NCBI GenBank assembly: GCA_021792455.1
Contig: JAJYUP010000012.1
Location: forward strand, 1-47,300
Origin: Actinomycetes bacterium
Lineage (GTDB): Bacteria > Actinomycetota > Thermoleophilia > Solirubrobacterales > Solirubrobacteraceae
Reading direction: 5' to 3'
Length of the DNA: 47,300 bases
Made by a program: the position numbers and the translations under genes. This document shows positions 3,407 to 40,725 of the stretch, piece after piece. Each line of letters begins with the position of its first letter. Positions within the stretch are counted from its first letter, which is position 1. The notes beneath the pieces are model-generated. The model did not search any database, had not been told where the DNA came from, and saw only the letters and a list, made by a program, of their open reading frames with translations.

Positions 3407-5548
3407 GTGCGTTCACTACCCGTCGGCGAACCGCAGCAGGGCGCGGCGGGCGCGGAGCTGGCGCCCTCGATCCAGGCGACGCCCCAGGCCTCCGTCGCGC
3501 AGCTGCAGCCGCTCCAGGCCCGGACTCGCCAGCACCAGCATCAGCAGCTGCGGCTGCTCGTCACAGCTGCGATCGCGCTGCTTCGAGAGTCGGCGCACCT
3601 CGACGTCATCGCCGCCGTCGCGTCGATCACGCTGCAGCAGGCCAGCCAGATCGTAGGCCAGCTCGAGCGTGAAGGGGTGCTCACAGGCGCCTCCCCGGCA
3701 CGTCTGTCACTCCCCCAGGAGGGCGTCGCCGCCCTCGAGCAGCTGCCCTCGTCTGTCTGCGCGCTCATGCACGCCGGCTGCGCGGAGCAGCTGCGCGCGC
3801 GTGGCGCCTCCGACCTCGAGGTCTGCCGCCATCTGCTGCGCGCGCCGGGACAGGGCCTGCCTGCCAACGTCGCCGCGCTCCGCCGCTGCGCGCACGCACA
3901 CATGCGTCGGGCGAAACCCAGGGAGGCGGCGGTGTGCCTGCAGCGGGCGCTGCGTGAGCCGCCTCAGGAATCGCAGCTGCCGGAGATCCTCACAGAGCTC
4001 GCGGAAGCGCTCGCCGGGGCGCAGATGCACCGCGCCGCGATCGACACCGCGCAGCGGGCGCTCGAGCGGTCACAAACGCTTCAGGACCAGGCGGGCGCCG
4101 TCGTCGCGCTGTTCAAGGCGCTGTGCGCCTGCGGTCAGGCCCAACAGGCGCTATCGCTGCTCAGCGGTGAGATAGAGCGGCTGCAGGGAGTGGACGAGGA
4201 GCTTTCGCTCCGTCTCGAGATCGAGCTGCTGCGCCAGGCGCCGCTGCACCGCTGCATCCTCGAAGCCGCCCTTCAGCGACACCGCGCGCGCGAGCTCGAC
4301 GAGACCCTGCCGTCCAGCCCCGCCTACCTGCTCGCCGTCGGCCAGATGCTCGGGATGGGCCCTGCTGCCCGGGCGGCGGACGCGATTGCCACGGTGCGGC
4401 GGAGCCTCCGTCTCGGCGGGCTCGAGCCTCGGCACCTCGAGTCTGCGGTGCGCTCCGCGCTGCTCATGCTCCGCGCCGACGACCCTGAGACGGCGCGCGC
4501 CCTCATCGCGCTCGCGCGCTCGCCGATGCCTGGCACCGCAGCTGCGCCGGCGCTCGACGCGGTCGAGGGGCTCATCGAGCTGCGGTGGGGATCGGTCGCC
4601 GTCGCCTCTCAAAGGCTGCAGGCGGCGCTCGAGCTCGCCTGCGAGCGGGGCGAGGAGTACCCCAAGTGGCTCGCGCTCGCCTTCCTCGCCCACGCGCTCC
4701 ATGAGCGTGGCGAGCGCGAGAGGCTCGCCGCCCTCATTGCGCAGCACCCGCCTGAGCGCCACGAGCAGAACATGGTCGCAGCGGTCATGCGGGTCGCGAA
4801 GGGCAAGCACCTGCTCGGGCTCTCAGAGCACCGGCTCGCACTCGAGGAGCTGCTCGCCGTCGATCGGCGCAAGGAGGCGATCGGGCTCACCAACCCCGCC
4901 GGATACCACCACATCGAACCCGCAGTCGACGCGCTCATCGCGCTTGGCCGCCTTCGCGAGGCGCTCGAGCTCGCCAACCGCAACCTCCAGCGAGCGCAGG
5001 CGTGGGGCGCGCCGATCACGATCGCCCTTGCCAAGGGCGCGCTCGCATCCTGCCTGCCGCCGAGGGAGGGGATCGCGCTGATCACGGAGGCGATCGGATC
5101 GCTGCCCGCCGACGCGAACATCACGCGCGCCGATCTCTTGCTGCGGGAGGGCCGCATCATGATCGCGGCTGGCCAGCCGCGCGAGGCGAGGATCGTGCTG
5201 CGCGAGAGCCTCGACACCGCGACGCGGATCGGCGCCCTCCGGATCGCGACCGCCTGCCAAGCGGCGCTGCACAGCCTTGGCGCCCGTCCCCGCCGTCCCC
5301 ACACCCATGGCGTCGACTCGCTCACGGTCGCTGAGCAGCGCGTCGCGATGCTCGCCGCCTCTGGCCTGCAGAACCGCGAAATCGCCGAACGCCTCCACCT
5401 GTCGGTGCGCACCGTCGAGAACCACCTTCGCCACGTCTACAGCAAGCTGTGCACCGACAGGCGCGGCCTCGCGAACGCGCTCGGCACCAGCGGATCCAAC
5501 GGCGGGGTGCTCAGCGTCGTGCCGGTCAGCCCGGGCGGCGCAGGCTGA
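3407..5548 (+). CDS. Large LuxR-type transcriptional regulator with helical-repeat sensor region, no ATPase domain
   Basis: The protein has 713 residues from GTG 3407, chosen because AAGGGGGAAG directly precedes it; the frame is open to 3137 through repeats. The last about 70 residues contain a LuxR helix-turn-helix (LTVAEQRVAMLAASGLQNREIAERLHLSVRTVENHLRHVYSKL, split here as LTVAEQRVAMLAASG and SVRTVENHLRHVYSKL). The middle is alpha-helical and Ala/Leu-rich, consistent with TPR-like repeats. An N-terminal winged-helix-like segment (VIAAVASITLQQASQIVGQL) resembles the stretch that follows the NTPase in LAL/MalT regulators. No Walker A is visible, so this looks like an LAL regulator without its ATPase. 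Its TGA (5546-5548) is 14 bp before the first candidate start of the sigma factor gene, suggesting translational coupling and a shared regulatory circuit. Signal and targets are unknown. Confidence 0.85.
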   Translation: MRSLPVGEPQQGAAGAELAPSIQATPQASVAQLQPLQARTRQHQHQQLRLLVTAAIALLRESAHLDVIAAVASITLQQASQIVGQLEREGVLTGASPARLSLPQEGVAALEQLPSSVCALMHAGCAEQLRARGASDLEVCRHLLRAPGQGLPANVAALRRCAHAHMRRAKPREAAVCLQRALREPPQESQLPEILTELAEALAGAQMHRAAIDTAQRALERSQTLQDQAGAVVALFKALCACGQAQQALSLLSGEIERLQGVDEELSLRLEIELLRQAPLHRCILEAALQRHRARELDETLPSSPAYLLAVGQMLGMGPAARAADAIATVRRSLRLGGLEPRHLESAVRSALLMLRADDPETARALIALARSPMPGTAAAPALDAVEGLIELRWGSVAVASQRLQAALELACERGEEYPKWLALAFLAHALHERGERERLAALIAQHPPERHEQNMVAAVMRVAKGKHLLGLSEHRLALEELLAVDRRKEAIGLTNPAGYHHIEPAVDALIALGRLREALELANRNLQRAQAWGAPITIALAKGALASCLPPREGIALITEAIGSLPADANITRADLLLREGRIMIAAGQPREARIVLRESLDTATRIGALRIATACQAALHSLGARPRRPHTHGVDSLTVAEQRVAMLAASGLQNREIAERLHLSVRTVENHLRHVYSKLCTDRRGLANALGTSGSNGGVLSVVPVSPGGAG

Positions 5549-5755
5549 GGGCTGAGGGCACCGTGCAGACCATTGCCCAGGAGAGCCCCAAGGGCGGGCG
5601 AGAGAGCCGCGGCGGGACGGCGCAGGCTGAGGGTCGCGTGCATACCATCGCGAAGGAGAGCCCCAAGGGCGGGCGAGAGAGCCTCGGCGGGACGGCGCAG
5701 GCTGAGGGTCGCGTGCATACCATCGCGAAGGAGAGCCCCAAGGGCGGGGTCGCAA
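5538..5755. repeat. 75-bp tandem repeat, three copies, tripling the sigma-factor start region
   Basis: The element GAGAGCCCCAAGGGCGGG recurs. The GTG codons at 5563, 5638 and 5713 are exactly 75 bp apart, and each follows a GCTGAGGG ribosome-binding-like element. The unit begins with the last codons and stop of the LuxR gene (GGCGCAGGCTGA), so the duplicated piece spans the gene junction. The period is 25 codons and all three starts are in one frame. Confidence 0.95.
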
Positions 5756-6462
5756 GCCGGGGTCCTGACCAGGCCCGCGGCAGCAGGGCCGCGTTCACAG
5801 AGGCCTATCGAGCCCACGTCCACGACGTCTACGCCTTCTTCTCCTACAGCAGGATCGCCAAGGAGGACGTCGAGGACCTCACGCAGGCCACCTTCGAGCG
5901 GGCGCTCCGAGCGTGGCACAGGTTCAACCCTGCCACAGCCAGCGCCAAGACGTGGCTGCTCTGCATCGCTCGCAACCTGCTCATCGACCACCACCGCCGC
6001 CTCCGGAGACGCCCCCAGGTGCCGCTCACGGACGCCCATCAGTCTCAACTGCGGCAGGAGGCGGAACCCTTCGCGGCAGGCGGCGGCACGGGCAAGAGCG
6101 CTTTCGGCTGCCACGCCGACGACGGCGCTCGCGCGCTGCCCTTCGGCGACCAGGCGGAGGAGCGGCTGCTCGCCGCTCTCGCCAGCCTCTCCCAGCGCGA
6201 GCGCGAAGTCATCGCGCTGCGCTTTGGGGGCGAGCTCAGCGGCCCTGAGATCGCCTCCCTGCTCCGCCTCAGCCTCGCAAACGTCCAGCAGATCGCCTCA
6301 CGCGCCCTTCGCCGGCTGCGCGCCGAGCTCGAGGACTCTCAGGAGGCAGCGGATCCCGCTCGTCCTGCTCGGGATCTCGCAGCGAGTCCCGCTCAGCAGG
6401 CGAGCACACCCTTCACCAGCTGCTCCCAGCCTGCCTGCAGACGAGAGACGCTCATTCCCTGA
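5563..6462 (+). CDS. ECF-type RNA polymerase sigma factor with repeated N-terminus
   Basis: Domains: sigma region 2 (FTEAYRAHVHDVYAFFSYSR, then EDVEDLTQATFERALRAWHRF and WLLCIARNLLIDHHRR split at this point), a variable linker, and sigma region 4 (LSQREREVIALRFGGELSG, then EIASLLRLSLANVQQIASRA). It directs RNA polymerase to specific promoters, typically for stress or envelope responses. Three in-frame GTG starts, each with its own GAGGG element, give 299, 274 or 249 residues. Only the last start (5713) yields a protein without the 25-residue repeats. No anti-sigma gene is adjacent; the upstream neighbour is the LuxR-type regulator. The last about 23 codons overlap the 3' end of the convergent TetR gene by 70 bp. 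The family is certain; the start is not. Confidence 0.88.
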   Translation: MQTIAQESPKGGRESRGGTAQAEGRVHTIAKESPKGGRESLGGTAQAEGRVHTIAKESPKGGVASRGPDQARGSRAAFTEAYRAHVHDVYAFFSYSRIAKEDVEDLTQATFERALRAWHRFNPATASAKTWLLCIARNLLIDHHRRLRRRPQVPLTDAHQSQLRQEAEPFAAGGGTGKSAFGCHADDGARALPFGDQAEERLLAALASLSQREREVIALRFGGELSGPEIASLLRLSLANVQQIASRALRRLRAELEDSQEAADPARPARDLAASPAQQASTPFTSCSQPACRRETLIP

Positions 6463-7054: not shown

Positions 7055-7203
7055 GTTGCCTGTCGGCCCCGCGGGCGCCTCTTCGAGTCTCGCCCAGGAC
7101 CTTCGCACAGTCAGGCACGGTCGTGGGATCACGACGACGCACCCCCCAGAGCACAGAGACCAGCAGAGAACACGAAGACCAGCACAGAACGCAGATATCG
7201 GCA

Positions 7204-7260
7204 GAGAGCTCAACGACAAGCAGAGAGCTCAACGACAAGCAGAGAGCTCAACGACAAGCA
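7204..7260. repeat. 19-bp tandem repeat, three perfect copies, in the yceI leader
   Basis: GAGAGCTCAACGACAAGCA is repeated three times without mismatch at 7204, 7223 and 7242. A degenerate GAGAACACGA partial follows, then the AGAGGAG ribosome-binding site. Each unit contains the SacI-like palindrome GAGCTC. It lies in the 5' untranslated region. Confidence 0.95.
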
Positions 7261-7284
7261 GAGAACACGAGCAAGAGGAGTCAC

Positions 7285-7854
7285 ATGAGCACTGACGTTC
7301 AAACCCCAACAGACCTCGAGGCCCCAGTACCGCAGCAGATCCCCGCCGGCACCTGGAAGCTCGACCCCGTCCACTCAGCCGCGAGCTTCTCGGTTCGCCA
7401 CATGCTCGTCGGCACCTTCAGGGGAGAGTTCGACCAGTTCGACGTCACGCTCTCCGACGGCAGGCTCGAAGGGACCGCTGAGGTCGCCTCGCTCCGCATC
7501 AAGGACGAGAGGCTGAAGGGGCACCTCGGCTCCCCTGACTTCTTCGACGCAGAGCGCCACCCGCAGATCTCCTTCCAGTCGCAGCAGCTCAGCGTCGAGG
7601 ACGGGAAGGTGAGCGGGCAGGGCACCCTCACCGTCAAAGGAGTCACCGCCCCTGTTCAGTTCACTGGCACGATCGCCGGGCCGGCGATCACGCTTGGCGA
7701 GGTCGAGAAGATCGGGCTCGACCTCCAAGCAACGGTCGACAGGGACGCGCTTGGCCTATCCTGGAATGCGCCGCTGCCGAAGGGCGGACTCGTGCTCGGC
7801 AGGCAGGTCACGATCGACGTCACCCTCGAGCTCGCGCGTGCTGAGCAGGAGTGA
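7285..7854 (+). CDS. YceI-like lipid-binding family protein
   Basis: The protein has 189 residues. ATG 7285 is preceded by AGAGGAG. Typical YceI features are GTWKLDPVHSAASFSVRHM near the start, then F-GEFDQFDV, DFFDAERHPQISFQS, GTLTVKGVTAPV and GLDLQATVDRDALGLSWN. Family knowledge: YceI proteins form a lipocalin-like barrel that binds long isoprenoid or similar amphiphiles. No signal peptide is seen, so it is probably cytosolic, as in many actinobacteria. It is the first gene after the TetR-controlled promoter and probably co-transcribed with the FMN reductase 27 bp downstream. The family is sure; the ligand is unknown. Confidence 0.93.
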   Translation: MSTDVQTPTDLEAPVPQQIPAGTWKLDPVHSAASFSVRHMLVGTFRGEFDQFDVTLSDGRLEGTAEVASLRIKDERLKGHLGSPDFFDAERHPQISFQSQQLSVEDGKVSGQGTLTVKGVTAPVQFTGTIAGPAITLGEVEKIGLDLQATVDRDALGLSWNAPLPKGGLVLGRQVTIDVTLELARAEQE

Positions 7855-13119: not shown

Positions 13120-13371
13120 CTAGCCTGCCGCGAACGGCCCGTGTCCGAGCACGCCGAGGATAACCACGCACAGAGCGGCGAGCCCGATCAGCGTCAGCAG
13201 CGCAACGAGCGGCCACAGCTTCGCCCCGCTCATCGGCATTCGCAGCGCCTCCAGCTCACGTCCCAGCCTGCCCTGCCACCCCTCGCCTGCCGCCGGCTTC
13301 GCTGCGCTCAGCAGCTCTGAGAGCTCTGAGAGCTCGCGCTCGTCCTCTCCCAGCATGTCCTCGAAGCTCAC
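13120..13371 (-). CDS. Small membrane protein (hypothetical)
   Basis: The protein has 83 residues. The acidic N-terminus (MSFEDMLGEDERELSELSELL) is followed by a linker and one strong transmembrane helix (WPLVALLTLIGLAALCVVIL) near the C-terminus. The organisation resembles small anti-sigma-like or cell-envelope accessory proteins, but no motif is recognised. It sits between the O-antigen-ligase-like gene and the two-helix protein on the same strand. Downstream, TGCAGACA recurs at 13052, 13077 and 13100 as a weak repeat. Confidence 0.6.
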   Translation of the reverse strand: MSFEDMLGEDERELSELSELLSAAKPAAGEGWQGRLGRELEALRMPMSGAKLWPLVALLTLIGLAALCVVILGVLGHGPFAAG

Positions 13372-13488
13372 CGCGCCATCCCTTCGCTCACGCGAGATCT
13401 CCCAACCTGCCGCCCATTCATCGGGGGATCATCCCTTCAACAGCCTCATCACCGCTGCACCGCATCCGTCATCGCTGCACCCTCAGCC

Positions 13489-15663
13489 TCATCCCTTGAA
13501 CAGAGGGTCGTGGCGGTCGAGGGCGTGAGCCGTCCGCCAAGCCGTCAACGCCGCTCCTGTCCTGCCCCGCTCAGCTTCGATCCTCGCAAGCACCGCCCAG
13601 GACTGCCAGTCGCTCCTCGCGTTTGCGATCGCCGTCCTCGCCAGGCGCGAGGCGGCCCCCAGGGATCCATCCTGCTCGAGCACCAGTGCCTGCTGCAGAG
13701 GCGCTTCCGCAGAGAAGGGCTCTATCGCTGACGCGGTCTTCGCATCGCTCAGCGCCGCCGCCAACCGCCCACTTCGTGCTTCGGAGACGCTTTCGCGCAT
13801 CGACAGCTGCTCGCTCAGAGGCCAGGCGATCGCAGCGATGCTCAGCGCTCCCACCGCCGTCCAGGCCGCAGCGCTTCCCATCCGGGCAGGCCGCCGCCAA
13901 CGCAGCCTCCGCCGACCTCGCCCTGCCCGAGTCAGCCCCCATCGACGTCGCTCTCCCCCACGCAGCCTCCGCCGACCTCGCCCTGCCCGAGCCAGCCCCC
14001 GCCAAGCCTCGTTCACCCCCTCCTCCTCCGCACGACGCACCCCAGCCCCGCCTGCACCGTCCCTGTGCTCCCTTGCCAAGCCTGCCGCCACCAGCAGCAT
14101 CAACACTGACACCAGGGCGGGCAGCTGCCACACCCAGTCGTAGATCGCCGCCACCCAGAAGGCGACGCAGCTGCTTGCGATCGCGGCGGCGATCTCGCGC
14201 GATCCGTTGAAGCCCAGCGCCCTCTGCCGCCATCTCCCCAAAGCCCTTCCCCTCAGCGCTCCCCACAGCCCGCTTGTCAGAAATGCCGCAAGAAGCAGGA
14301 TTCCCGGCAGCCCCAGCTCACCCAACGTTTCGAAATACAGTGAGTGCGCGTTCTTCACATAGCCGAAGATGCTCCCCTTTGAGGGCCACCAGATCCAGAA
14401 CGTGCCTGCGCCTATGCCGAGTGGGTGTGACAGAAAAGCCGCCAGGCATGACAGCCACATCTGCCAGCGGCCCTCTCCACTCAGGCCTGTCAGCCGCCCT
14501 GCGATGCTTTCGCCGGGCTTCATGTAGATGCCGCGCCCTTCGAAGCGATGCCACAGGCGGACGAGCTCCGCGGGCCCGCCGAAAGCCAGGAACAGGATCA
14601 CCGCCGCTGCGAGGGCGACTCCCACCCACACACCTGGCCTCACCTCTCTCAGGCGCGAGGCGCGCCTCAGCGCGGAGTGAGAGCCTCCGCGCTCACGCTC
14701 GATCAGTGAGATGGCACCGTTCAGGACAGCGACGCCGAGGCAGACCAATATCGTCATCAGGATGAGAGCGCCGCCCTGCCGGGCGGCGGCGGTGTTGGCA
14801 GCGTTGTGCATCACTGCGGGCCGCTCGCTCGTCGCCGCGATCAGGATCGCCCCGCCGCCTGCGCCGAGGGCCATGCTCGCCGCTGTCCACAGCCTGCCGC
14901 CGCCAAGCGCCAGCAGCACAACCACTGCCACAGCCATCTCCAGCCAGCCCCCGCGGGAGAACGTCAGGTAGCTCGTCGCGAGCATCATCGGGATGCATGC
15001 CGCCGCTGCGCTTCGCGCCAGCAGGTGCTTCGCCCTCGCTGCGAAGTGCACTGCCAAGGGCACGCCCATCGCAACCAGGGCGGCGAGCCCGTTCCAGTAG
15101 TTGATCGGCCAGCTCAGGCGCTGTGCTGACCCTGAGAGGAACCTCCCCGTCAGCTGCGATCCTGCAAAGAGGCCTGGGCTCAGGCGTGAGCACAGCGCGA
15201 GCACGCAGACGACCGCGATCGCACAGAGAAGGCCTGCCATCAGGTGCACGCGCGTTCTCGCCGTCACCGCCAGCAGGCCGAGGGCGAGAAACCCTCCGTA
15301 GACGGAGAGCTGCGACATCTGTTCGACGCTCGAGCCGCCGCTCAGAGACCACAGAGCGCTCACCCCTGACCACAACGCCAGGGCGAGCAGGATGCCCAGC
15401 GTCAGGATCCCCTGCCTGCTCAGCCTCCCCAGGGGGAGCACGCCGCAGAGAACGCCTGCGATCGCCACCCACCAGATCGCAACGCCGACCTCCCCGTAGA
15501 GCACGCGTTCGTAGCCGCCGCCGTTCACCGCGAGGTAGAGGGGCAGCACGAGGCCGAGCAGGAAGGAGGCGGAGCTCTGCCCCAACACCGCGACTCGCGG
15601 GCGCCTCTGCGCTCTGCTTCTCAGCCTCTGGGCCGCTGCCGCCTCGAGCGTGTATGCATCCAC
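13489..15663 (-). CDS. O-antigen ligase/Wzy-like membrane protein with C-terminal TPR-like domain
   Basis: The protein has 724 residues from GTG 15663 with GAGAGG just upstream. About a dozen hydrophobic segments are visible. The loop FLSHPLGIGAGTFWIWWP...NAHSLYFETLGELG carries the NxHSxYxxxxxExG pattern of the Wzy/WaaL (PF04932) family. After the last helices an Arg-rich insertion (two copies of LARAGRGRRRLR-type sequence) precedes a further helix and a TPR-like tail (SEARSGRLAAALSDAKTAS...). It probably polymerises or ligates lipid-linked polysaccharide at the outer face of the membrane. It fits with the sugar transferase and BY-kinase at the left edge. It is divergent from the secreted protein at 15763. 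Confidence 0.88.
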   Translation of the reverse strand: MDAYTLEAAAAQRLRSRAQRRPRVAVLGQSSASFLLGLVLPLYLAVNGGGYERVLYGEVGVAIWWVAIAGVLCGVLPLGRLSRQGILTLGILLALALWSGVSALWSLSGGSSVEQMSQLSVYGGFLALGLLAVTARTRVHLMAGLLCAIAVVCVLALCSRLSPGLFAGSQLTGRFLSGSAQRLSWPINYWNGLAALVAMGVPLAVHFAARAKHLLARSAAAACIPMMLATSYLTFSRGGWLEMAVAVVVLLALGGGRLWTAASMALGAGGGAILIAATSERPAVMHNAANTAAARQGGALILMTILVCLGVAVLNGAISLIERERGGSHSALRRASRLREVRPGVWVGVALAAAVILFLAFGGPAELVRLWHRFEGRGIYMKPGESIAGRLTGLSGEGRWQMWLSCLAAFLSHPLGIGAGTFWIWWPSKGSIFGYVKNAHSLYFETLGELGLPGILLLAAFLTSGLWGALRGRALGRWRQRALGFNGSREIAAAIASSCVAFWVAAIYDWVWQLPALVSVLMLLVAAGLAREHRDGAGGAGVRRAEEEGVNEAWRGLARAGRGRRRLRGGERRRWGLTRAGRGRRRLRWRRPARMGSAAAWTAVGALSIAAIAWPLSEQLSMRESVSEARSGRLAAALSDAKTASAIEPFSAEAPLQQALVLEQDGSLGAASRLARTAIANARSDWQSWAVLARIEAERGRTGAALTAWRTAHALDRHDPLFKG
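13901..13997. repeat. 60-bp spaced direct repeat coding the Arg-rich insertion in the O-antigen-ligase-like gene
   Basis: CGCAGCCTCCGCCGACCTCG and the following CCCTGCCCGAG occur at 13901 and again at 13961, period 60 bp (20 codons). The frame is kept, and the insert lies in a soluble loop before the last transmembrane segment. Confidence 0.88.
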
Positions 15664-28437: not shown

Positions 28438-28653
28438 TCACCGCCCTGGGGGCCCGTTTTCGAACATCGCACGCCCCTTCGCCGTCGCCTCCGCAACCGT
28501 TCCCCTTGGGGGCCCGTTTTCGAACATCGCACGCCCCTTCGCCGTCGCCTCCGCAACCGTTCCCCCTGGGGGCCCGTTTTCGAACATCGCACGCCCCTTC
28601 GCCGTCGCCTCCGCAACCGTTCCCCTTGGGGGCCGTTTCGCAGCGTCAGCCAC
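28438..28653 (-). CDS. Possible repeat polypeptide encoded by the 60-bp array
   Basis: A 71-residue frame on the ssb strand consists of units MFENGPPGGTVAEATAKGRA (20 residues, three times) with short flanks. Each unit has its own AAGGGG-N7-ATG, so translation could begin in any unit. The frame lies between the hypothetical gene at 28706 and ssb, same strand. No similarity is recognised. It may simply be a non-coding array that stays open because its period is 60 bp. Confidence 0.25.
   Translation of the reverse strand: MADAAKRPPRGTVAEATAKGRAMFENGPPGGTVAEATAKGRAMFENGPPRGTVAEATAKGRAMFENGPPGR
28441..28640. repeat. 60-bp tandem repeat, just over three copies, upstream of ssb
   Basis: GGGGGCCCGTTTTCGAACAT begins near 28448, 28508 and 28568, with a partial at 28628. 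Copies differ by one base. The period is 20 codons and the array has no stop in several frames. On the minus strand every unit has AAGGGG seven bases before an ATG. Confidence 0.97.
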
Positions 28654-31949: not shown

Positions 31950-32281
31950 GCCGTCACTCCTTTCTGGCGCCCTTCCAGATTGGCGCCATAGATGTGGAAA
32001 GCGCCGCCGGGGGGCGGCGCTTCGTCGTGTTGGGTTGCGGCCTCAGGCCGCGTTCGTTGCGCTGCAGAGCAGCGCCCGAAGACAGGGGGGCCTCAGCGCG
32101 CCTGCGCAGAGCGCGCAGCGTTCAGGGCTGGGGCCAGGTTCCTCAGGTGTGTCGATCCAGGCGGACAGCGGCGGCTCACGCCCAGGCCAGCGCAGCATCA
32201 GGGAAGAGCTTCGCGGCTATGCCAGCTCGACCTCGCGTGGGCTCACGCAGGCCAGCGCAGCATCAGGGAATAGCTTCGCGG
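31950..32281. other. Intergenic region with duplicated gene end
   Basis: The 332 bp between the coupling ATPase and the upstream hypothetical gene hold no supported gene. The right part is the 67-bp repeat described separately. The left part is GC-rich, with GCCGCCCCCC-type runs. Confidence 0.6.
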
Positions 32282-32325
32282 CTATGCCAGCTCGACCTCG
32301 CGTGGGCTCACGCCCAGGCCGTCGC
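32174..32325. repeat. 65-67-bp tandem repeat overlapping the 3' end of the hypothetical gene
   Basis: GGCCAGCGCAGCATCAGGGA followed by AGCTTCGCGGCTATGCCAGC appears twice (units from 32174 and 32241), and GCTCACGCCCAGGCC restarts at 32306. The second copy contains the last codons and TAG stop of the gene at 32282-33310; the first is a non-coding copy of the same end. Confidence 0.93.
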
Positions 32326-36624: not shown

Positions 36625-39600
36625 TCAGCTGTTCAGGCTCGACTGCCTTGGCGATGGGAGCTGCCCAACGCCGATCGCAGGCTCCAAGGGAGGTTCCCGC
36701 TGAAGCGCCGCGCGAACCTGCGGTGGCAGCCGGTGAAGGCTGTAGCCCTGAAGCAGCCCCTCGTGGACGTCGCGCTCGGCTGCGAAGATGATGCGCTCAC
36801 GGCCGATGTAGCGCCAGCGAGCGGGATGAACGCCGGCGCAGGCCTGCGCGGCGAGAAGCAGCGAGTCGGCCGTCAGCGCGCATTCACGCGCCCTGCGCCT
36901 GTCGGAGCAGACGAAGATCAGGTGCGGCGTGAGCCGGTTCTTTGCGTGATAGCGCTGGAGTGCGCTGGACCAGCCGGTGAGGAAGTGGTCATATCTGCGA
37001 ACCTTCGCTGCCCAGGCCGGCGTGTGCAGGCGATCGTCGAGGTCGACGAGCAGCTCGAGGCCGGCCCCTCTGTGCGCCGGCGCCTGCGCTGTGATCCGCG
37101 CATGCGGCCTGATCGTCTCGAAAGCGCGCACCTCTTCGAGATCGCCCGCGGGTCCTGCCTGCACGAACTGGTGTGCGACGGCACCGCGAGGGAGCGTGAG
37201 CTGAGCGGGGCCCATCACGGCACCCTCTCGCTCTCCCCGAGAACCAGGCGGCGAGAGCACGGCGTTCGCTGCACCTTCGAGCAGAAGCCCGCGCATGCCG
37301 ACAGCGCGCTCGTAGGCACAGCACCACGCGGCGGCGTGCACCTCCCGGCGAACGGCGGAAAGGCCAGCCCCGCCGGAACCCAGATCGAGTGGCTGACTGC
37401 GCTGAACGGAGAGCCCCCGCGCAGCCAGCAGCTTCAGCCCTGCGTCACTGAGACCGCAGCACATCGGCACGCCGCCGCCATCAGGCCTGTGAAGCTGGAT
37501 GCGCTCGAGAAGCCCGGCATCAGCGAGGCGCTTCAGCCGTCGCTGGGTCGTCGTGACCGCCCTGCCTGCGCCAAGGCGGCGATGCACCTCGCTGCTGAGC
37601 AGATGACCGAGCCTGCCGATGAGAAGGAGCACCTGAAGATCCTCCTGACGGAGAGCAAGGGCGCCGGGCGGGCTCATCCCCGCCCGACTGGACAGGCGGG
37701 CCGCCTGCCCACTCGAAGCACCTGGAACCTGACGAGCGCGGCTGGCGCCGTCGAGCTCGACGAGCTCCCGATAGCTCTGTGCGGCGAGCTTCGGCAGAGG
37801 CGGAAGAGCTTGGGGGACGACCTGCTCCTGTGACCTTTCGAGGGAGAGCGTCGACGCCGGAGGCCTCGAGAGGGACGCCTCGCCCTCCGTTGTCGGGGCC
37901 TCGCGCTCCGGGGCCGAGTCCGGAGAAGCCGCGGTGCGCGAGCTCAGGCGGACAGAGGCGAGCGATCTCGAACCTCCCGGCTGCTCACCTCCCAACGTCT
38001 GCGGAGAGCCCTCCTGCGCAGGAGCGCAGGAGCTCCCAGAAGGCGCGGGATGCCCAACGGAAGGCCCATCCTCGCGCGAAGGGAACAGGGAGCGCCCAGA
38101 AGGCGCGGGAGGCCCAGCTCCCCCCCGCGCCGATGGCCGCAGCCCCTCCTGCCTCACCCGCCCTCGAGGGGCCTGCGCCTGCTCTGCGTCTGCCGCCAGG
38201 CCTTCCCAATGCGGCTGGCTGAGATCAGACTTGTAGCGGCCACCTCGCTCAGCCTGCCTCGCAGCGTGCCACGCGAGCATCTGCTCATCGATTCTCATCG
38301 GGAGCGTCTGCGCGATGAACGGCGGCTGGCGACCCTCAGGGGTGCTCCAGCTGACGATCGCGTGATGCCTCGGCAGGTGGAGTCTCGCGTCAGGGTGACC
38401 GAGCGCTGCGAGATTCTCGATCCGCGGCCGCACCATGTCAGAGAACTGCGCCATCGTCAGCTTCGCCGACTCGCGCGCGTCCTGCACGGAGGCGGTTGCG
38501 AAGTACACCCTGTGCGCGAACAGCGCGTCGAGCTGCTCCCGCAGCTGCCTGTCCGTCCACTGCGCAGAGGTCTGCCAGCAGGCGACCGTCTCCAGTCCCG
38601 CTGAGCGCTTGAGCGCGATCGTCTCCGCAAAGCCGCGGTTGAGCGCGAGCGGAGCCTCATCGACCTTCAGCGCAACGGAGACGCGCTGCTGCGCTGGCAC
38701 CCGATCCTGCTGGCGCGCAAGGGCGGCGTCGAGCATCCCGACGAGCAGCTGCATCAGCACCGAGGTGTTGCCCGCGCCCATCTCACCAAGCGCACCCTTG
38801 ACGACGAGGACCTCACCCTGAGAGATGACCTCGTCGAAGTCGATCCTCAGCGAGTCGTTGAGCAGCACCCTCTTGATCGAAGGCGAGTTGAGCAGACGCG
38901 CGAGCTTGTTGACAGGCGCATCGAGCTTTGCGGTGGTGACGCTCCTGGCATCAGAGAGCTGGGCGCTGAGCTCCGCGGTGAAGAACTCCGAGATCTCCTT
39001 CAGCTCAGGCAGCTCCCGCACCCGCGCGCCGACCTTCGCCCTGTATGAGTAGCCATCCCGTCCAACCGAGAGCAGCCGTGCCGCGTCCCAAAGCGTGCTC
39101 TTGCGGTCGTAGGCGAGCACGGCGATGATCGCGTTGCGCAGATACCTGTCTGATGAGGCTTTGATGTCGGCGTCGTCGAACAGGTTCCTCAGCGCAGCGA
39201 CGACGTAGTCGGCGATGACGTCGGCAGGGGCATCGACAGCGAGCGGGTTGAATCCGCAGGTTGGGTGCGCGAAGTCGAGCAGGGTGCACGTCCTCTCCCT
39301 CGGCACGATGGACACTGCAGCCTCCGCAGCGTCGCCCTTCGGGTCGAGCAGCACGATCGCGCACCTCTGCCTGCGCAGATCCTCTGCGACGGTCGCAACG
39401 AGGTAGCTCGACTTGCCCTGCTCGACGGTGCCGGGAACCGCGGTGTTCTGCTTGCGCATCTCAGGGTGGATGGAGACGGGGCCATGCTGATCGCGCAGGG
39501 ACCCCTCCCCAGGCGGAGGCCTGTAGATCGCTGGCGGCGCCGGTGCAAGCGGCACCTGCGCGCGCGAGATCGCCACGTTCGCGAAGTCGACGGAGGGCAT

Positions 39601-40581
39601 GTGCCAGATCGCCGCGAGCTCGGTGGATGCGAGCACCCCCTTGCGGGTGCTCGGAAACGGGTTGCCCTCGCCCTTCACGACCCGGGCGCTGTAGGTGTGA
39701 AACAGGCGATGGCGCACCGTCGTGCCCCGCTCGACGAGCCTGTTCTGCGCCTCGCGAGCACGCAGCTCCGAGGCGACCCGCTCGCATGTGAGACGCTTCT
39801 GGGCGACGATCCTGATGTCCGTGAAGAACAGCGGCCTGTACTGGACTTCGAGGCCGTCCTGCAGTTCGCTGCGCTCGAGCACCGAGCCGACGCTTGCCCG
39901 CTGCCGGCGGCGTCGCGCAGACGCGGCCTCCTGCCGCCTGTACAGGCGCCTCGCATGCGCCTGAAAGCTCGCAGGCGCGGGCGTGAGCGCGAGCTGGACG
40001 AACGATGGCGCATCGCAGGCAGCCATCGTCATGAGCAGCCGGTTGACGGAGGGCTCGCTCTGATGCTGCAGCGGATCGATGACTGCGAGACGCTTGATGA
40101 ACAGATGCCGCTTCTTCAGGCGGAGCACGACAGGCGGACAGCAGAGGCGCAGCCGCTCAGGCGCAAGCCTGCAGTTCGGGTAGGCGGAGCGCAGCGCCGA
40201 CTGCACCATCGACAGCAGCTCCTGCTGGCAGCTGAGCGCAAGCCAGGCAGTCTGCCCATCGAAGTGAACCTCGAGGGCCACCGACGGCTGACCGCGCAGC
40301 AGCCGACGCCACCACCGCTGCAGCAGGCGCTTGTGCAGAGCCTCGAACATGTCGACGATCGCCTCAGCGCTCGCATCCTCCCCTCTGTAGGGGAGGACCC
40401 TGACGCGCACGTATCGACGGGTCGACCTGCTGCGAGAACGGAGCAGCGAGAGGAGCGCGAGCAGCAGGCCGAGGCTGATCGTCACGCAGAGGAGCGCGCG
40501 CTGGAGCGCAGGCGTCAGCCCACCGGCGGAGAAGACCGCAGACAGCGGAGCTGGCTCGAAGCACGACACCTCACCCCCCAC
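36625..40581 (-). CDS. Giant coupling-type ATPase fused to a Replic_Relax-like C-terminal domain
   Basis: The protein has 1318 residues from GTG 40581 (GTG 40569 is an alternative with a better GGGGGTGA). TM at about 29-48; a conserved middle; Walker A PGTVEQGKSSYLV near 385; IVLLDPKGDAAEA near 410; Walker B VSVALKVDEAP near 636; CWQTSAQW near 665 (sensor-like). A Pro/Ser/Gly-rich linker (about 787-953) leads to a winged-helix and Replic_Relax-like part (LLIGRLGHLLSSEVHRRLGA, TTTQRRLKRLADAGLLERI, LELLVDLDDR and WAAKVRRYDHFLTGW). It therefore joins in one chain what the 29.4-31.9 kb locus encodes as two neighbours. Presumed membrane DNA translocase; no relaxase or VirB4 is adjacent. The nuclease-like lysine position is not evident. 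Confidence 0.8.
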   Translation of the reverse strand: MGGEVSCFEPAPLSAVFSAGGLTPALQRALLCVTISLGLLLALLSLLRSRSRSTRRYVRVRVLPYRGEDASAEAIVDMFEALHKRLLQRWWRRLLRGQPSVALEVHFDGQTAWLALSCQQELLSMVQSALRSAYPNCRLAPERLRLCCPPVVLRLKKRHLFIKRLAVIDPLQHQSEPSVNRLLMTMAACDAPSFVQLALTPAPASFQAHARRLYRRQEAASARRRRQRASVGSVLERSELQDGLEVQYRPLFFTDIRIVAQKRLTCERVASELRAREAQNRLVERGTTVRHRLFHTYSARVVKGEGNPFPSTRKGVLASTELAAIWHMPSVDFANVAISRAQVPLAPAPPAIYRPPPGEGSLRDQHGPVSIHPEMRKQNTAVPGTVEQGKSSYLVATVAEDLRRQRCAIVLLDPKGDAAEAAVSIVPRERTCTLLDFAHPTCGFNPLAVDAPADVIADYVVAALRNLFDDADIKASSDRYLRNAIIAVLAYDRKSTLWDAARLLSVGRDGYSYRAKVGARVRELPELKEISEFFTAELSAQLSDARSVTTAKLDAPVNKLARLLNSPSIKRVLLNDSLRIDFDEVISQGEVLVVKGALGEMGAGNTSVLMQLLVGMLDAALARQQDRVPAQQRVSVALKVDEAPLALNRGFAETIALKRSAGLETVACWQTSAQWTDRQLREQLDALFAHRVYFATASVQDARESAKLTMAQFSDMVRPRIENLAALGHPDARLHLPRHHAIVSWSTPEGRQPPFIAQTLPMRIDEQMLAWHAARQAERGGRYKSDLSQPHWEGLAADAEQAQAPRGRVRQEGLRPSARGGAGPPAPSGRSLFPSREDGPSVGHPAPSGSSCAPAQEGSPQTLGGEQPGGSRSLASVRLSSRTAASPDSAPEREAPTTEGEASLSRPPASTLSLERSQEQVVPQALPPLPKLAAQSYRELVELDGASRARQVPGASSGQAARLSSRAGMSPPGALALRQEDLQVLLLIGRLGHLLSSEVHRRLGAGRAVTTTQRRLKRLADAGLLERIQLHRPDGGGVPMCCGLSDAGLKLLAARGLSVQRSQPLDLGSGGAGLSAVRREVHAAAWCCAYERAVGMRGLLLEGAANAVLSPPGSRGEREGAVMGPAQLTLPRGAVAHQFVQAGPAGDLEEVRAFETIRPHARITAQAPAHRGAGLELLVDLDDRLHTPAWAAKVRRYDHFLTGWSSALQRYHAKNRLTPHLIFVCSDRRRARECALTADSLLLAAQACAGVHPARWRYIGRERIIFAAERDVHEGLLQGYSLHRLPPQVRAALQREPPLEPAIGVGQLPSPRQSSLNS

Positions 40582-40595
40582 TCCGACGATCGCAG

Positions 40596-40725
40596 CCCCG
40601 CTGGACAGACCTGCCCGGACCCGCTGGACAGACCTGACCGGCCCCGCTGGACAGACCCGCCCGGCCCCGCTGGACAGACCCGCCCGGCCCCGCTGGACAG
40701 ACCCGCCCGGCCCCGCTGGACAGGT
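40596..40725. repeat. 23-bp tandem repeat, five copies plus a partial, upstream of the giant ATPase
   Basis: CCCCGCTGGACAGACCCGCC-type units begin at 40596, 40619, 40642, 40665 and 40688, with a partial at 40711. The last three full copies are identical, which points to recent expansion. The array starts 15 bp upstream of the ATPase GTG and lies in its leader. Confidence 0.96.

What the first reader, a model, noticed from the sequence alone, without database searches (positions are those of the whole stretch)
5538..5755. Sigma-factor translation start tripled in frame by a 75-bp repeat spanning the gene junction
GTG codons at 5563, 5638 and 5713 are 75 bp apart, in one frame, and each follows its own GAGGG element. 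The unit includes the end and stop of the upstream LuxR gene. Copy number would alter both the N-terminus and the number of ribosome entry sites of a global regulator, a possible phase-variation-like dial.
Basis: partly seen in the sequence, partly recalled or inferred. Interest (0 to 1): 0.62.

Follow-up and report, generated by a model that had tools for sequence, protein, structure and literature searches.

The report
Junction tandem repeat extends sigma factor
A 75-base stretch covering the end of one regulator gene and the start of the next has been copied 2.65 times, so the second gene (an ECF-type sigma factor) carries three in-frame start signals and a repeated front end; it is one of many gene-junction duplications in this bacterial lineage, most of which appear to keep ribosomes running from gene to gene.

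Summary
A 75-bp tandem array (5550-5748, 2.65 copies) bridges a LuxR-type gene (stop 5546-5548) and an ECF sigma-factor gene. GTGs at 5563, 5638 and 5713 are in the sigma frame, each 4 nt after GAGGG.

The 'phase-variation dial' is not supported. 75 = 3x25, so copy number cannot switch the gene off. There is no unusual RNA fold, and no length data exist. The sigma factor is ECF-type, not shown to be global.

Codon scoring and a home-made gene caller favour initiation at 5563, giving 299 aa with a lineage-specific N-terminal tail. Use of 5713 alone is not excluded.

The array is one case of a wider habit. In this MAG and congener G021, duplicated stop junctions occur at 3-6% of stops, versus 0.3% in congener G009 and 0/143 in other, mostly actinobacterial, loci. 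Seven arrays at ATGA/GTGA junctions, including gatC-gatA, all have 3n-1 periods (20, 26, 47, 53, 62, 71, 80 bp) and read as relays of mini-ORFs joined by 4-nt stop/start overlaps, as in mycobacterial MIRUs. The sigma array is the 3n (fusion) counterpart. Junction repeats seem tolerated when translation stays continuous: inferred, post hoc, small numbers.

The parts
3407..5548 (+). LuxR-type regulator gene (ORF from 3137; coding-scored start 3407), TPR-like middle, GerE/LuxR HTH at its C-terminus; stop TGA 5546-5548
   Evidence: Pfam PF00196 E 6.2e-11; codon-model gene call; ortholog only in congener G021 at 49%
5545..5558 (+). 7-nt tandem duplication CTGAGGG x2 over the LuxR stop, putting the real stop out of register with the 75-bp array
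   Evidence: read directly; register 82 versus 75
5550..5748 (+). 75-bp tandem array, 2.65 copies: 5550-5624, 5625-5699, 5700-5748
   Evidence: TRF; single locus in genome and genus
5554..5565 (+). copy 1 GAGGG + GTG start (5563); favoured sigma start, 14 nt after the LuxR stop
   Evidence: chosen by home-made gene caller
5629..5640 (+). copy 2 GAGGG + GTG (5638), in frame
5704..5715 (+). copy 3 GAGGG + GTG (5713), in frame; last start codon before conserved region 2
5674..5708 (+). unit tail related to the LuxR 3' end (CGGG[A]CGGCGCAGGCTGAGGG, 20/21)
   Evidence: score 34, 0 of 1000 shuffles reach it
5563..6462 (+). ECF sigma-factor gene, 299 aa from 5563 (274 from 5638, 249 from 5713)
   Evidence: Pfam PF04542/PF04545/PF08281, NCBIfam TIGR02937
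5806..6012 (+). sigma region 2
   Evidence: PF04542 E 2.4e-16
6175..6324 (+). sigma region 4
   Evidence: PF04545 E 8.3e-13
13418..13492 (-). second junction array in the window: 20-bp (3n-1) mini-ORF relay between genes 13489-15663(-) and 13120-13371(-); comparator, not part of the sigma array
   Evidence: TRF period 20 at 13449-13493; relay read

Best explanation
A tandem duplication of the operon junction (LuxR tail, stop, SD, GTG and first sigma codons), made by slippage or unequal recombination in a minisatellite-rich Solirubrobacterales-related MAG lineage. Because the unit is 3n long and stop-free in the sigma frame, it was kept as an in-frame fusion. Ribosomes initiate mainly at the first GTG (5563), 14 nt after the LuxR stop, probably by SD-assisted reinitiation. 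They read through all copies, giving an ECF sigma factor with a hydrophilic repeated N-terminal tail. GTG 5638 and 5713 are minor internal starts. Copy number would lengthen or shorten the tail rather than switch the gene. Shown: array, frame, SD/GTG sets, coding-like codon use, intact sigma domains, recurrence of junction arrays in the lineage. Inferred: which start is used, coupling, tolerance rather than function.
For: Array and frames. Unit scores as coding in the sigma frame, 0.17 per codon against 0.168 for the sigma core; 2.9% of intergenic and 0.14% of off-frame windows score as high. The in-frame GTG 5449 inside luxR is disfavoured (-0.275). Gene caller selects 5563. The tail is absent from order-level homologs, which mostly start 3-14 aa before the equivalent of F28. 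Junction arrays recur: 22/715 stops in G000 and 14/248 in G021, against 1/361 in G009 and 0/143 in other loci; in G000 the rate at stops equals that of intergenic DNA (3.1 v 2.9%), as expected of a mutational background plus tolerance.
Against: Within the unit, the coding signal is strong after the GTG (0.331) but weak before it (0.03), so translation upstream of 5713 is not proved. No proteomic or ribosome data. The genome is an incomplete MAG in 242 contigs; copies 2 and 3 share about 65 identical nt, so the exact copy number needs long reads.
Confidence: 0.6

Rival explanations
1. Neutral leader repeat: only the last GTG (5713) is used; copies 1 and 2 are untranslated leader, in frame by the 1-in-3 chance.
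For: 5713 gives the shortest product; homologs have short N-termini; the unit half before the GTG scores only 0.03.
Against: Copies 1 and 2 keep SD, spacing, GTG and an open frame; whole-unit codon use is coding-like; 5563 sits closest to the LuxR stop.
Confidence: 0.25
2. Functional tuning dial: copy number varies in populations and sets sigma-factor level or activity.
For: Copies 2/3 are identical over 49 nt (recent change); each unit carries SD+GTG. MIRU arrays between senX3 and regX3 differ between M. tuberculosis strains (PMC4213456).
Against: No length data; no array in the 23 congeners searched; in-frame unit cannot switch; such arrays are common across this genome; no special RNA structure (z 0.37).
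Confidence: 0.1
3. Assembly artefact of a fragmented MAG.
For: 242 contigs, 83% complete; repeats are error-prone.
Against: Copies differ at diagnostic sites, the array is only 199 bp, and similar arrays with diverged copies occur at many loci and in a second genome.
Confidence: 0.05

Closest known systems
Mycobacterial interspersed repetitive units (MIRU), e.g. three 77-bp units between senX3 and regX3 in M. tuberculosis H37Rv
   Same: Tandem 50-80-bp units at the junction of two regulator genes; sister arrays in this genus share the 3n-1 arithmetic (77 and 53 are also 3n-1) and ORFs coupled at -4 nt (PMC12548453, PMC4213456).
   Different: MIRUs are a dispersed family; this unit occurs once. 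The sigma array is 3n and makes an in-frame N-terminal fusion instead of a mini-ORF. Its unit is made of the local gene ends.
Coding-region VNTRs / in-frame minisatellites
   Same: Unit divisible by 3 adding residues; the 31 in-gene arrays (period 30 bp or more) surveyed in this lineage are all 3n.
   Different: Here the unit also carries the SD and start codon and part of the upstream gene's end.
Simple-sequence contingency loci (phase variation, e.g. Haemophilus tetranucleotide repeats)
   Same: Repeat near the translation start of a gene.
   Different: Those shift frame or promoter spacing; a 75-bp unit cannot shift frame.

Membership tests
MIRU-type junction repeat | tandem repeat in the junction of co-directional genes | tested here: met
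MIRU-type junction repeat | repeat family dispersed over the genome | tested here: not met
   one locus only in own genome and in the genus
MIRU-type junction repeat | unit ORF coupled to the neighbouring gene by a 4-nt stop/start overlap (3n-1 unit) | tested here: not met
   75 = 3n, no mini-ORF chain at this locus; met at sister loci L208, L064, L176, L199, L262, L269 and window 13418-13492
MIRU-type junction repeat | copy number varies among strains | not testable with these tools
   whole-genome set holds one genome per species
Phase-variable contingency locus | copy-number change alters reading frame or promoter spacing to switch expression | tested here: not met
   period 75 is 3n; sigma frame open through every copy
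ECF sigma factor | sigma-70 regions 2 and 4 present, region 3 absent | tested here: met
ECF sigma factor | adjacent anti-sigma gene (frequent, not obligatory) | tested here: not met
   neighbours are luxR upstream and a TetR gene on the other strand downstream

The most novel reading that the evidence does not exclude
In this Solirubrobacterales-related lineage, tandem duplication of operon junctions is a recurrent mutation filtered by translation: at NTGA overlaps mainly 3n-1 units survive (relays of mini-ORFs, even inside gatC-gatA), and otherwise 3n units survive as N-terminal fusions, as in this sigma factor. This generates coupled leader peptides or protein tails that can evolve.
Probability: 0.35. 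Interest if true: 0.6.

Novelty: new variant of a known kind. Interest (0 to 1): 0.42.

Why it matters
If right, gene-junction repeats are not random clutter: their length is screened by the need to hand ribosomes from one gene to the next. The MIRU arrangement would then be a special case of a general rule that genome counts can test. The sigma array would show how such an event adds a repeated tail and spare start sites to a regulator.

Tried and rejected
Start at GTG 5449 inside luxR: rejected on codon score. RNA-structure role: z 0.37. Antisense ORFs (5526-5798, 4823-5755): scores near zero or negative, typical of GC-rich DNA. Copy 3 tail as a diverged repeat: not significant (27% of shuffles). 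Homology of the unit upstream of the 20/21 LuxR match: not significant. The unit in viral contigs: none. A cluster of differences around copy 1's start was seen, but 3 synonymous and 4 nonsynonymous codon changes are too few to interpret. Mini-ORF relays in general exceed a shuffle null only modestly (G000 31 v 23.9, max of 200 shuffles 30; G021 10 v 5.8, max 9; G009 6 v 5.0). The G021 'intergenic random' rate is invalid (all-N contigs). A script scan counting every duplicated stop gave a weaker mod-3 skew (NTGA, co-directional: 9 of 16 are 3n-1; others 18 of 35).

Full report
OBSERVATION. The window (contig C222 of an incomplete MAG, 83% complete, 242 contigs; relatives are Solirubrobacterales/Thermoleophilia) holds a 75-bp tandem array at 5550-5748, 2.65 copies. 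It bridges a LuxR-type gene ending at 5548 and an ECF sigma-factor gene ending at 6462 (Pfam and NCBIfam). GTG 5563, 5638 and 5713 are in one open frame; each follows GAGGG by 4 nt. The unit occurs once in the genome and in no congener. The part of the unit up to GAGGG matches the LuxR 3' end at 20/21 nt, so the unit is LuxR tail plus sigma head. The original LuxR stop is offset by an extra 7-nt CTGAGGG copy, and the copied TGAs are in a third frame.

WHICH START. A codon model trained on 0.89 Mb of the same genome scores the unit in the sigma frame at +0.17 per codon, equal to the sigma core (0.168). The other two forward frames are negative, and the sigma frame inside luxR (5449-5545) is -0.275. 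Only 2.9% of intergenic and 0.14% of off-frame coding windows score as high. The signal is stronger after the GTG (0.331) than before it (0.03), so the case for translation of copies 1 and 2 is good but not closed. A simple home-made gene caller picks 5563. Most order-level homologs start 3-14 aa before the position equivalent to F28 of the 249-aa form, so the tail is lineage-specific whichever GTG is used. No unusual RNA fold. I take 5563 as the main start (inference), with reinitiation 14 nt after the LuxR stop plausible (general mechanism reviewed in PMC12548453).

IS IT A DIAL? The unit is 3n, so copy number cannot shift the frame. Copies 2 and 3 are identical over 49 nt, which fits recent slippage, but no second strain is held, so variation is untested. 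Extra GTGs lie inside an ORF already translated from 5563.

CONTEXT. Tandem arrays are frequent in this genome: in about 1 Mb of G000 plus congener G021, 81 arrays with period 30 or more, of which 31 lie inside genes and all 31 are 3n. Duplicated stop junctions occur at 22/715 stops in G000, 14/248 in G021, 1/361 in G009 and 0/143 in other, mostly actinobacterial, loci; in G000 the rate at stops (3.1%) matches intergenic DNA (2.9%). So the sigma array needs no special explanation for its origin.

THE RELAY ARRAYS. G021 has the only ortholog of this LuxR in the genus (49%), and its downstream junction also carries an array, with a different unit: 80 bp, 2.7 copies. There each unit opens with a GTG overlapping the previous TGA (GTGA), giving luxR, a 27-aa ORF, a 27-aa ORF, then the next gene. 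The same design occurs at gatC-gatA in G000 (71 bp, 24-aa ORFs; GatC and amidase confirmed), at L176 (26 bp), L199 (62), L262 (53), L269 (47), and in the window itself at 13418-13492 minus (20 bp). In at least five of these (L208, L199, L262, L269, L176) the mini-ORF begins with a copy of the next protein's first residues. All seven periods are 3n-1, the only class that restores a -4 overlap in every copy. For periods not divisible by 3, chance would give 2 mod 3 in all seven with probability 1/128; this was noticed post hoc. Counter-cases exist: L175, 73 bp, breaks the chain, and the 61-bp duplication at L269 4884 does not lead to the next gene's start. In the genus, gatC and gatA overlap directly (-4) in 12 of the 21 genomes where both could be placed, so the array is derived; inferred insertions of 107, 44, 44 and 35 nt in G011, G006, G018 and G007 are all 2 mod 3 (from coordinates, computed; sequences not read).

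COMPARISON. MIRUs are the nearest known kind: 77- and 53-bp units (both 3n-1) between senX3 and regX3 (PMC4213456), with an ORF coupled to the gene at -4 nt (PMC12548453). The sigma array is not a MIRU: not dispersed, no mini-ORF, 3n. Together the two outcomes, relay (3n-1) and fusion (3n), suggest that junction duplications persist when translation stays continuous. That is my inference from few loci.

LIMITS. Gene calls and codon scores are from my own scripts. Assemblies are MAGs. No expression data. The general rule needs an independent genome-wide count.

Noticed in passing
L208 6647-6840 (G000 contig C218): gatC-gatA junction carries 2.7 copies of a 71-bp unit that reads as two 24-codon ORFs linked by ATGA overlaps; 12 of the 21 genus genomes where both genes could be placed have the direct ATGA-type overlap instead.
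   Followed up: yes
L064 4518-4730 (G021 contig C108): Ortholog of the window's LuxR gene followed by an 80-bp array with a different unit, making two 27-codon ORFs linked by GTGA to the next LuxR-like gene.
   Followed up: yes
window 13418-13492 (-): Chain of mini-ORFs (7, 7, 7, 4, 17 codons) linked by NTGA overlaps between genes 13489-15663 and 13120-13371, on a 20-bp repeat.
   Followed up: partly
L199 11498-11563, L262 8722-8778, L269 1236-1333, L176 minus strand 1490-1571: Further junction duplications with 3n-1 periods (62, 53, 47, 26 bp) in which the mini-ORF copies the next protein's first residues.
   Followed up: partly
window 7157-7266: 19-bp repeat (5.8 copies) in the leader just upstream of the gene starting at 7285.
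   Followed up: no
window 40595-40723: 23-bp repeat (5.6 copies, 95%) just upstream of the long minus-strand gene 36625-40581.
   Followed up: no
window 28447-28638 and 32173-32313: 60-bp (3.2 copies, 97%) and 65-bp (2.1 copies, 96%) arrays outside clear genes or at a gene end.
   Followed up: no
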